From contig NZ_JACHCI010000001.1 of the NCBI RefSeq assembly GCF_014200675.1, positions 434,001-498,000 of the forward strand: a DNA stretch of 64,000 nt, read 5' to 3'. Within the stretch, counting starts at the first letter, position 1, and each line of letters begins with the position of its first letter. The DNA comes from Janthinobacterium saanense. Lineage in GTDB: Bacteria > Pseudomonadota > Gammaproteobacteria > Burkholderiales > Burkholderiaceae_D. The translations under genes were made by a program, and so were the position numbers. Below are positions 15,979 to 18,918 of this stretch, piece after piece. Below the pieces are notes generated by a model that searched no databases, was not told the origin of the DNA, and was given only the letters and a program-made list of their open reading frames with translations.

Positions 15979-16818
15979 CTATCCTAGCGCAAGAGAGGGC
16001 GCCTCGGCAGCTTCTTGCGCCAGCCGGGCCAGCACCGGGTGGGCAAGCGCCGGCACGGAATAGCACAGCCCCAGGCGGCGCGTCAGCTGTCCGCCGGGCA
16101 GGGCGCAGGCCCGCAACGCGGGATGCTGCAGTATCAGCGAGCGTGGTGCGATGGCCAGTCCCATGCCGGCCGCCGCCATGCTCAGGGCCAGTTGCAAGGT
16201 GCCCGCCTGCGCGGCAGGGAAAGCGGCCATGGCGCCGTACAGCGGCAGCAAACGCTGATGCGAATAATCTGCAGGGCAGGTGATCCAGCTGGCGCTGGCC
16301 AGCTCTTCGGGGCGCGGCAGCGCATCGCCATCCAGCGCGTGCGTCAGCGGCACGGCCAGCGCATACGCTTCTTCGCGCAGCGGCAAAAATAACTCATCTT
16401 CGCAGCGGTCCTCTTCAGGCGCCAGGCGCGCATGGCCGCTGCAGCCAGGCTCCAATGTCAGCAGCAAACGCGGTTCCAGCGCCTGCAAACGCGCGGCCAG
16501 GGCCGCGATATCCTCGTCGGCGATATCGTGCGCGATGCCGATCGACAGGGCCAGCCTGTCACGGTTGTGGCGAAATTGCTGCGTTAGCGCCTGTGCTTCG
16601 GCCAGCATGCGCTGCGCCTGTGGATACAGGGTGCGCGCATCGCTGGTCACTTCCACGCCGCGCGGCAGGCGCAAGAACAGCTGCGTGCCCAGCGCATCTT
16701 CCAGGGCCTTGATGGTGGCCGACAGGGCGGGCTGCGTCAGGTGCAGGCGGCGGGCGGCGGCGGTGATGTTGCGTTCTTCAAAGACGCATAAAAAGGCGTT
16801 GAGCTGGCGGGAATCCAT
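15979..16818 (-). CDS. LysR-family transcriptional regulator (divergent from SDR)
   Basis: A 279-residue LysR regulator: winged HTH MDSRQLNAFLCVFEERNITAAARRLHLTQPAL (shown by its key residues NITAAARRL and TQPALS), then a substrate-binding domain. The second domain is slightly short (full proteins are usually ~300 residues). The start at 16818 fits the family; the open frame runs on into the SDR gene but that extension is spurious. It is divergent from the SDR gene with a 109-base AT-rich gap, so it likely controls that gene. Confidence 0.87.
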   Translation of the reverse strand: MDSRQLNAFLCVFEERNITAAARRLHLTQPALSATIKALEDALGTQLFLRLPRGVEVTSDARTLYPQAQRMLAEAQALTQQFRHNRDRLALSIGIAHDIADEDIAALAARLQALEPRLLLTLEPGCSGHARLAPEEDRCEDELFLPLREEAYALAVPLTHALDGDALPRPEELASASWITCPADYSHQRLLPLYGAMAAFPAAQAGTLQLALSMAAAGMGLAIAPRSLILQHPALRACALPGGQLTRRLGLCYSVPALAHPVLARLAQEAAEAPSLALG

Positions 16819-16927
16819 AATTTTTTTTGATGGCTGTGAAAAGAAAACACGATTTTTCACCGTGACTCCCCATGAATATACTGGATTTTTAACAGGATTC
16901 ATCATATTTTTTAATAAGGAAAGCCTC

Positions 16928-17671
16928 ATGTCCAGCACCACCACTTCCTCGCCGCGCCTGATCGTCATCACCGGCGCCAGTTCCGGCATCGGCCTGGCGA
17001 CGGCACAGAAACTGTCTGCACTGGGCCATCCGCTGCTGTTGCTGGCCCGCCGCCTGGACCGCATGCAGGCGCTGAAGCTGCCCAATGCGCTGTGCGTGCC
17101 GCTCGATATCTGCGACCGCGCCGCCTTCGTTGCCGCCGTGGCCAGCGCCGAGGCGCAGTTTGGCCCGGTCGACGCCATTATCAATAACGCCGGCGTGATG
17201 CTGCTCGGCGAAGTCAGTACGCAAGACCCGGAACAATGGGACCGCATGTTCGACGTCAACGTGAAAGGCTTGCTCAATGGCGTGCACGCCGTCAGCGCCG
17301 GCATGGTGGCGCGCCGTACGGGCACCATCATCAACGTCGGTTCCGTGGCCGGCCACAAGGCCTTCCCCAATCACGTCGCTTACGTGGGCAGCAAATTCGC
17401 CGTGCACGGCCTGACGGAAAACCTGCGCGAGGAAATGTCGGCGCACAATGTGCGCGTGGTGACGATTGCGCCGGGCGCGGTGGAAACTGAGCTCCTGGGC
17501 CACACCACCGATGAAGGCATCAAGACCGGTTATCACGCGTGGAAAGAAAGCATGGGCGGCGTGGTGCTGTCGGCCGACGATGTGGCGGCCGCCATCTGCT
17601 ACGCCTACCAGCAGCCGCAGGGCGTGTGCATACGCGAAATCGTGCTGGCGGCCACCCGCCAGCAAGCTTGA
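16928..17671 (+). CDS. Short-chain dehydrogenase/reductase (SDR)
   Basis: A 247-residue classical SDR. NAD(P)-binding TGASSGIG near residues 15-22, the NNAG motif (IINNAGVMLLGE), catalytic Ser in NVGSVAG and the Tyr-x3-Lys pair in YVGSKFAVHG. The C-terminal part resembles the YdfG-like oxidoreductases. Substrate unknown. The start is the ATG at 16928 behind AAGGAAAG; the frame opens much earlier, but that part is antisense to the lysR gene. Probably under control of the divergent LysR. Confidence 0.9.
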   Translation: MSSTTTSSPRLIVITGASSGIGLATAQKLSALGHPLLLLARRLDRMQALKLPNALCVPLDICDRAAFVAAVASAEAQFGPVDAIINNAGVMLLGEVSTQDPEQWDRMFDVNVKGLLNGVHAVSAGMVARRTGTIINVGSVAGHKAFPNHVAYVGSKFAVHGLTENLREEMSAHNVRVVTIAPGAVETELLGHTTDEGIKTGYHAWKESMGGVVLSADDVAAAICYAYQQPQGVCIREIVLAATRQQA

Positions 17672-17734: not shown

Positions 17735-18700
17735 ATGCAAGCTCGCACCATTTTTTTTTCCATCCTGTTCGGCCTGTCGCTGGCGCCGGCGCATGCCGCC
17801 ACCACTGCCGTCCCGGTTACGCTGTTGACGCCGCCCGATCCGCTGACCAGGCCCATCGCCTCGCCGTACGAGGCGCAATGGAACCGCCCGCAGCAGCCGG
17901 CGCGGATCTATGGCAACACGTATTACGTGGGCGTGGGCGGCCTGAGCGTGGTGCTGATACATACCGGCGCGGGCCTGGTCCTGATCGACGGCGCGCTGCC
18001 GCAGTCAGTGGCAATGATAGAAGCGAGTATCCGCCAGCTGGGCTTTCGCGTGCAAGACATCAAGTTCATTTTGAATACGGAAGCGCATTTCGACCATTCG
18101 GGCGGCATCGCCGCACTGGCCCGCGATAGCGGCGCTGTAGTCGTGGCCAGCCCGCTGGGCGCACAGGCGCTGCGCGCGGGGCGGGTGCTGGAGCAAGACC
18201 CGCAGGCGGGTGATATCGAGCCCATGCCGGCGGTGGCGAAGGTCAGCGAGATCATCGATGGCGGCATGTTGACATTGGGCGCGACCACCATCACGGCCCA
18301 CCATATGCCCGGCCATACGCCGGGCAGCACCAGTTGGACCTGGGTCTCGTGCGAAGCGGTGGGCAGCAGCACCGGCAATCCGAATACCTGTTTGAATGTG
18401 GTGTTTGGCGCCAGCCTCAATGCCGTGGCGGCCGACGATTTTCACTTCCTGGCCGACGTAAACCATGGTGATTTGACGCCGGATTTTCGCCGTGCCATCA
18501 ACAAGTTTGCCAGCCTGCCTTGCGATATCCTGATCACCTCCCACCCGGATCATTCGGGCGCCGACCAGAAGCTGGCGCAATTGCTGGCGGGCGTCAAACC
18601 GAATCCCTTTATCGATGCACAAGGGTGCCGCAAGGCTGCCATCACCTTCGAGGCGCGGCTGGAAAAGCGCATCGCCAAGGAAAAGGCAGCGGCCAAATAA
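17735..18700 (+). CDS. Subclass B3 metallo-beta-lactamase, E116 (B3-E) variant
   Basis: A 321-residue secreted protein: signal peptide about residues 1-21 (LFGLSLAPAHA), then the B3 fold. Metal ligands are readable: EAHFDH gives Glu116, His118, Asp120 and His121; His194 in MPGHTPGS; His270 in ITSHPDHS. B3 enzymes normally have His (or Gln in GOB types) at the first position; Glu here matches the group called B3-E. The segment YGNTYYVGVGGLSVVLI and LIDGALPQS resembles the THIN-B/L1 group, so beta-lactam hydrolysis in the periplasm is likely. No AmpR-type regulator is next to it; expression control is unknown. Confidence 0.87.
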   Translation: MQARTIFFSILFGLSLAPAHAATTAVPVTLLTPPDPLTRPIASPYEAQWNRPQQPARIYGNTYYVGVGGLSVVLIHTGAGLVLIDGALPQSVAMIEASIRQLGFRVQDIKFILNTEAHFDHSGGIAALARDSGAVVVASPLGAQALRAGRVLEQDPQAGDIEPMPAVAKVSEIIDGGMLTLGATTITAHHMPGHTPGSTSWTWVSCEAVGSSTGNPNTCLNVVFGASLNAVAADDFHFLADVNHGDLTPDFRRAINKFASLPCDILITSHPDHSGADQKLAQLLAGVKPNPFIDAQGCRKAAITFEARLEKRIAKEKAAAK

Positions 18701-18873: not shown

Positions 18874-18885
18874 CGGTGTTCCAAG

Positions 18886-18918
18886 AAAACCCCGGTGAGG
18901 AAACTCGCCGGGGTTTTT
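18886..18918 (+). terminator. Strong rho-independent terminator with GAAA tetraloop
   Basis: Arms AAAACCCCGG... pair with ...CCGGGGTTTTT. The stem continues through GTGAG/CTCGC (with one G-T wobble) to a GAAA tetraloop and is followed by a T-run. It ends the RNA starting after the beta-lactamase gene. Confidence 0.9.

What the first reader, a model, noticed from the sequence alone, without database searches (positions are those of the whole stretch)
17735..18700. B3 metallo-beta-lactamase with Glu in place of the first zinc-binding His
The active-site motif reads EAHFDH. B3 enzymes usually have His at this position (116), some Gln (GOB). Glu places this protein in the rarely studied B3-E group; zinc affinity and substrate range may differ. 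The other five ligands are present. The rest of the sequence is THIN-B/L1-like, suggesting a working enzyme.
Basis: partly seen in the sequence, partly recalled or inferred. Interest (0 to 1): 0.65.

Follow-up and report, generated by a model that had tools for sequence, protein, structure and literature searches.

The report
Beta-lactamase with glutamate zinc ligand
This Janthinobacterium gene very probably encodes a working zinc beta-lactamase of the small, already described B3-E group, in which a glutamate replaces a zinc-holding histidine; what is new is that a neighbouring residue appears to change together with it, and that the organism's other B3 gene has lost part of its metal site.

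Summary
Observation confirmed. The ORF at 17735-18700 (+) encodes a 321-aa subclass B3 metallo-beta-lactamase (NCBIfam NF033105, 288.9 bits, cut-off 240) with ligands E116-H118-H196 / D120-H121-H263. Its nearest solved relative by sequence is SIE-1 (7LUU), which a 2023 review calls the only characterised B3-E enzyme; trees place it with SIE-1, not THIN-B. B3-E is in print since 2020, so this is a new member of a known kind. 32 of 40 Janthinobacterium genomes carry the gene, all EHH/DHH, under purifying selection.

Two points go beyond the finding. (1) Residue 220, reported as second-shell partner of residue 116 in LRA-12, is Ala or Ser in 56 of 56 distinct E116 proteins and acidic in 159 of 184 H116 proteins. 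This suggests a paired change moving a carboxylate from second to first zinc shell. It rests on one or two evolutionary events; no distance was measured. (2) The host's other B3 gene, an Rm3 orthologue, has lost two Zn2 ligands (HHH/DQR); two further species show HHH/EHL. Both stay under purifying selection. The E116 enzyme is thus this genome's only B3 protein with six plausible ligands. No activity was measured.

The parts
17735..18700 (+). subclass B3 metallo-beta-lactamase of the B3-E type, 321 aa plus stop
17735..17797 (+). likely Sec signal peptide MQARTIFFSILFGLSLAPAHA (read by eye, no predictor run); low confidence in the model
   Evidence: sequence; mean pLDDT 44-58 over residues 1-30
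18080..18097 (+). EAHFDH: E116 (GAA, 18080-18082) and H118 of Zn1; D120 and H121 of Zn2
18314..18316 (+). His196 (window residue 194), Zn1 ligand
18410..18415 (+). Ala220-Ser221 (window residues 226-227): second-shell position 220 that changes together with residue 116, and Ser221
   Evidence: numbering inferred from Asp220/Ser221 of L1 in PMC7020990 (passages)
18542..18544 (+). His263 (window residue 270), Zn2 ligand
18885..18918 (+). terminator-like hairpin with T tail (15 pairs); one such site found, 1.9 expected by chance, so weak

Best explanation
The gene encodes a chromosomal, very likely periplasmic B3-E metallo-beta-lactamase. Shown: six ligand positions E116-H118-H196 / D120-H121-H263, B3 fold (predicted model), clustering with SIE-1, conservation across Janthinobacterium, purifying selection. 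Inferred: two zinc ions bind, Zn1 through the Glu116 carboxylate plus two histidines, and a bridging hydroxide attacks the beta-lactam amide as proposed for AIM-1 and SIE-1. Inferred further: Glu116 is accommodated because the acid normally at position 220, the second-shell partner of residue 116, is replaced by Ala or Ser. The negative charge near Zn1 thus moves from second to first shell (His116 + Asp220 becomes Glu116 + Ala/Ser220), avoiding two facing carboxylates.
For: B3 model over its cut-off; SIE-1 the best solved match by sequence, about 52% identical over 234 residues; fold Z 40.1 to 7LUU. B3-E proteins conferred resistance on E. coli (letter, first of two parts read), and SIE-1 is active on all main classes with a cephalosporin preference (review, passages). 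32 of 40 genus genomes have the gene, all EHH/DHH; dN/dS 0.090 to the nearest orthologue; shared neighbours in most named Janthinobacterium loci. Residue 220, identical proteins counted once (243 rows): 56 E116 rows have A 39, S 17, no acid; 184 H116 rows have D 158, E 1, C 24, S 1. At 85% dereplication of the earlier set 16 of 16 E116 rows are A/S and 82 of 85 H116 rows acidic. LRA-12 paper: Gln116 interacts with Asn220 (PMC5531557, passage).
Against: E116 may have arisen once (one clade not rejected, p-AU 0.534), so the 116-220 link rests on one pair of lineages on supported branches, two on the best tree; a sign test cannot reach significance. The rule runs one way: 24 of 184 distinct H116 rows have Cys220 and one has Ser220, so losing the acid does not force Glu116. 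The SIE-1 paper was not held, so its authors may have noted residue 220 already.
Confidence: 0.82

Rival explanations
1. An ordinary B3-E enzyme in which the 220 difference is only ancestry: one ancestor happened to change both positions, and there is no functional coupling.
For: E116 rows fall in one supported branch; only one independent pair on starred branches; other positions also separate the groups, such as 72, 115 and 224 of the window protein.
Against: Position 220 swings between Ala and Ser several times inside the E116 branch but is acidic in none of 56 distinct rows. The two H116 proteins that sit inside or beside the branch (Rudaea L020, LIN-99 L019) have Asp220. A 116-220 contact is published for LRA-12 (passage).
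Confidence: 0.4
2. A B3-fold hydrolase whose main natural substrate is not an antibiotic, for example a lactone or a cell-wall fragment; beta-lactam hydrolysis is secondary.
For: Retained in 32 of 40 genus genomes; no divergent LysR/AmpR-type gene directly upstream of the window copy; many genus genomes carry two further B3 copies; a paper on the B3 enzymes MIM-1 and SAM-1 reports beta-lactam and homoserine-lactone degradation in its title (PMC7392888, passages seen).
Against: B3-E enzymes tested so far act on all main beta-lactam classes and confer resistance. Ser221 is kept.
Confidence: 0.12
3. A zinc-poor or inactive pseudo-enzyme because Glu116 weakens Zn1.
For: Replacement of a conserved ligand; SIE-1 is generally less efficient than AIM-1 or GOB-18 (review, passage).
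Against: SIE-1 keeps both zinc sites with Zn-Zn 3.75 A (review, passage); all other ligands are kept in 32 of 32 genomes that have the gene; dN/dS 0.090-0.162 for four pairs of close orthologues (0.289 for one distant pair).
Confidence: 0.05

Closest known systems
SIE-1 of Sphingobium indicum (PDB 7LUU), the characterised B3-E enzyme
   Same: EHH/DHH ligands, Thr115, Ser at 221, no acid at 220; nearest solved sequence (241 bits); same tree branch
   Different: About 52% identical over 234 residues. Three annotated sphingomonad plasmid relatives with the same ligands have a divergent LysR-type gene directly upstream; the window gene does not.
THIN-like enzymes of Janthinobacterium (copy A here)
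   Same: B3 subclass and genus
   Different: H116 and D220 in the copies on the tree, 44-50% identical to the window protein; window protein 249.9 bits on the THIN model, cut-off 700; copy A not found in this genome
Rm3 (5IQK), a metagenomic B3 enzyme that groups with Janthinobacterium copy B
   Same: B3 fold, Z 41.2 to the model
   Different: Canonical HHH/DHH with D220; separate branch
GOB-18 and LRA-12 (B3-Q)
   Same: First Zn1 ligand is not His
   Different: Gln116 and Met221 in both, Asn220 in LRA-12 (passages); low similarity, 92.9 bits on the GOB model, cut-off 560

Membership tests
Subclass B3 metallo-beta-lactamase | Match over the curated cut-off of NCBIfam NF033105 | tested here: met
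   288.9 bits, cut-off 240
Subclass B3 metallo-beta-lactamase | B3 fold | tested here: met
   predicted model, pLDDT 89.4; Z 41.2 to 5IQK, 40.1 to 7LUU
Subclass B3 metallo-beta-lactamase | Hydrolysis of beta-lactams | not testable with these tools
   no assay possible
B3-E variant | Ligand set EHH/DHH | tested here: met
   32 of 32 genus genomes that have the gene (of 40 searched)
B3-E variant | Placement with SIE-1 in a tree | tested here: met
   one branch, SH-aLRT 97 and 98 (quick trees), holding all E116 rows used plus two H116 rows; E116 as one clade not rejected, p-AU 0.534
B3-E variant | Two zinc ions, Glu116 bound to Zn1 | not testable with these tools
   reported for SIE-1 (review, passage)
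THIN family | Curated cut-off 700 bits | tested here: not met
   249.9 bits
L1 family | Curated cut-off 560 bits | tested here: not met
   144.4 bits
GOB / B3-Q | Gln116 | tested here: not met
   Glu116; 92.9 bits, cut-off 560

The most novel reading that the evidence does not exclude
B3-E is not a single-residue variant but a coupled switch of zinc ligand 116 and its second-shell partner 220 that keeps the charge around Zn1 constant (H116/D220 to E116/A or S220, with Q116/N220 of LRA-12 as a third solution). In this lineage the switched enzyme has become the only B3 protein with a full metal site, because the Rm3-type copy was converted into a conserved protein with a rewired Zn2 site and probably a new role.
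Probability: 0.4. Interest if true: 0.58.

Novelty: new member of a known kind. Interest (0 to 1): 0.42.

Why it matters
According to the 2023 review only one B3-E enzyme has been characterised. This work shows that the type is carried by most genomes of an environmental genus and names residue 220 as a likely reason why glutamate is tolerated as a zinc ligand. That can be checked at once on deposited structures. It also bears on inhibitor design, since Zn1 chemistry differs between B3 types. The conserved paralogues of Rm3 with an altered Zn2 site are natural material for asking what a B3 enzyme does when it is no longer a dizinc beta-lactamase.

Tried and rejected
Acquired, mobile resistance gene: rejected for the window copy. 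It lies at a site shared with other Janthinobacterium; the plasmid search gave six records, all under 60% identity. Some E116 relatives do lie on sphingomonad plasmids.

AmpR-type regulation: no LysR gene directly upstream in divergent arrangement; the gene directly upstream is an SDR-like gene on the same strand. Other genomes were not checked for this. No promoter-like site was found directly upstream of the gene in the region scanned; one lies downstream.

A route through Gln116 (one base at a time): only three Q116 rows turned up, all with Cys220; the one on the tree lies in a distant branch, so no support. The codon at 116 is GAA in 31 and GAG in 2 of 33 loci (the own genome counts twice).

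Measuring the 116-220 distance: no model coordinates are laid for scripts, so not done. Reading the SIE-1 paper: not held. Second-shell literature: Asp220 is named once in PMC7020990, as the start of a loop; the Asp220 in PMC4463611 belongs to another enzyme class.

Corrections made: an earlier notebook entry says the copy B gene of G036 carries a stop; the later extraction gives an intact 302-aa HHH/DHH protein. The count of residue 220 (71 E116, 193 H116 rows) held copies of the same protein from two collections; one search counts identical proteins once and is the one quoted.

The AU test on the 114-row tree did not finish; the value quoted is from the 35-row tree. Rows left out before counts: L003, L004, L005 and L080 (remote or partial) and twelve loci of genes already in the set. 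Of the 123 matches, 60 were taken into the 220 count (30 best loci plus 30 picked by me from the rest), so that sample is not random.

Full report
What is there. The ORF at 17735-18700 (+) is 321 aa with an ATG start and a signal-like N terminus. It passes the curated cut-off of the subclass B3 model (288.9 bits, cut-off 240). Aligned with relatives, its six metal positions read E116-H118-H196 / D120-H121-H263. The AlphaFold model (44-sequence alignment, mean pLDDT 89.4) matches solved B3 enzymes: Rm3 Z 41.2, MEM-A1 41.0, SIE-1 40.1. By sequence the best solved match is 7LUU, SIE-1.

Host and distribution. The window lies in a 6.1 Mb genome. Its genus is Janthinobacterium: the nearest named relative is Janthinobacterium sp. 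K2E3 (94%), and each of the 15 named Janthinobacterium proteins is identical, over the catalytic domain, to one from a same-genus genome. Of 40 genus genomes, 32 hold the gene at 60-100% identity (31 at 70% or more; G002 at 60%), and all 32 read EHH/DHH. In the 15 named loci, 14 share the minus-strand gene upstream and 12 share the LysR and pirin-like genes downstream; Fe-alcohol dehydrogenase and DJ-1-like genes further upstream are seen in 10, the flank being short in others (families of the window genes where searched). The G002 copy showed none of these neighbours. In this genome and K2E3 a LysR gene and an SDR-like gene lie between the minus-strand gene and the enzyme. So the gene is old and chromosomal in this genus.

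Selection. Nei-Gojobori dN/dS (own script) is 0.090 against the nearest orthologue, 0.150-0.162 for three other close pairs and 0.289 for a distant pair.

Tree. With column 116 removed, the E116 rows fall in one branch (SH-aLRT 97, 88 rows; 98, 114 rows with column 220 removed too; both quick trees) that spans Janthinobacterium, one Dyella, Brevundimonas and sphingomonads with SIE-1. Two H116 proteins (Rudaea L020, LIN-99 L019) fall inside it. One clade for all E116 rows is not rejected (p-AU 0.534, 35 rows); with the long row L220 not counted in the group p-AU is 0.413. One origin with a reversal, two origins, or a single clean clade all remain open.

What is known. Pedroso et al. 2020 (PMC7381538, first of two text parts read) counted 90 EHH/DHH among 1,449 B3 proteins, coined B3-E, noted co-occurrence with native B3 genes in one genome, and ranked resistance B3 > B3-E > B3-Q in E. 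coli. The 2023 review (PMC10318434, passages) says SIE-1 is the only characterised B3-E enzyme, with two zinc sites preserved, Zn-Zn 3.75 A, and a preference for cephalosporins. PMC10740994 (passages) lists H/Q/E116 as Zn1 ligands. The finding is therefore a new member of a known kind.

A paired position. Comparing E116 with H116 rows column by column, residue 220 separates them completely at 85% dereplication: A 9 and S 7 of 16 E116 rows; D 81, E 1, C 3 of 85 H116 rows. After adding 60 loci from sphingomonads and counting identical proteins once, 243 rows remain: E116 56 (A 39, S 17); H116 184 (D 158, C 24, E 1, S 1); Q116 3 (C 3). So the clean split did not hold: Cys220 is common with His116 in one branch, and one Ser220 occurs there. 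What held is that no E116 row has an acid at 220. Thr115 and Phe218 accompany every E116 row but also occur in four H116 rows with Asp220. The LRA-12 paper states that Gln116 interacts with Asn220 and that a BJP-1 disulfide cysteine corresponds to 220 (PMC5531557, passages); L1 has Asp at 220 (PMC7020990, passage). This makes 220 the second-shell neighbour of ligand 116. The reading is that a carboxylate has moved from second to first shell. The phylogenetic sample is one or two events, so it is a structural hypothesis with consistent but not independent support.

The other B3 genes. Many genus genomes carry three B3 copies: A, THIN-like (one member tested: 609.5 bits on the THIN model, cut-off 700); B, the Rm3 type; and C, the window gene. 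In the window genome and G027 (K2E3 by identical protein) copy A was not found. Copy B at 71% or more to the own copy occurs in 29 of 40 genomes: 25 are HHH/DHH, two (own genome, G027) HHH/DQR with Asp at 221 and 223, two (G033, G009) HHH/EHL with Glu at 223. G009's window-gene orthologue is identical to that of J. psychrotolerans. The four sit at the place of the other copies (the gene downstream of each and an acetyltransferase-like gene are shared; names read by eye, no search), form one branch at SH-aLRT 92, and keep dN/dS 0.072 and 0.146 within their pairs. In L1 the substrate carboxylate contacts Zn2 and Ser221/Ser223 (PMC7020990, passage), so acids there plus lost Zn2 ligands argue against normal beta-lactam binding (inference). 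PMC10740994 lists only D120, H/Q121 and H/K263 for Zn2; E120, R263 and L263 are not in that table. The window genome also holds a class C beta-lactamase (516.8 bits, cut-off 415), so the E116 enzyme is the only complete B3 enzyme here, not the only beta-lactamase.

Verdict. A genuine, conserved B3-E enzyme, most likely active; known kind. The added value is the residue-220 partner and the conversion of the sister copy. On print: the listings (25 of 72 papers shown) showed no title or abstract start on residue 220 in B3-E; one search listed nine papers holding Janthinobacterium, metallo-beta-lactamase and THIN-B, of which I opened only PMC10740994, so an earlier mention of a B3-E gene in Janthinobacterium is not excluded. 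The library lacks most subscription journals and the SIE-1 paper itself. Pedroso et al. may well have counted Janthinobacterium genes among their 90.

Noticed in passing
L001:1357-2283 (own genome, contig C14:134368-135291); L117, L143, L144: Rm3-type B3 paralogues with altered Zn2 ligands: HHH/DQR (own genome and G027) and HHH/EHL (G033, G009), with new acids at 221/223, still under purifying selection.
   Followed up: partly
L019 and L020 (a proteobacterial MAG and Rudaea cellulosilytica): H116/D220 proteins that fall inside the E116 branch; possible double reversal or surviving ancestral state.
   Followed up: partly
L217, L218, L219, L220: E116 (B3-E) genes on large sphingomonad plasmids, two of them typed conjugative; the three with annotation have a divergent LysR-type gene directly upstream.
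   Followed up: partly
PDB 5IQK (Rm3) against L118, L123, L133, L136: The metagenomic enzyme Rm3 groups within the Janthinobacterium copy B sequences, which suggests its source organism.
   Followed up: no
L043 and L075: Two further B3-like proteins with apparent Zn2 ligand changes (Tyr at 121, and Thr at 263) in MAGs; may be real or assembly error.
   Followed up: no
window 15979-17671: A LysR gene and an SDR-like gene lie just upstream of the enzyme only in this genome and K2E3 among the 15 named Janthinobacterium loci compared; a lineage-specific insertion or a loss elsewhere.
   Followed up: no
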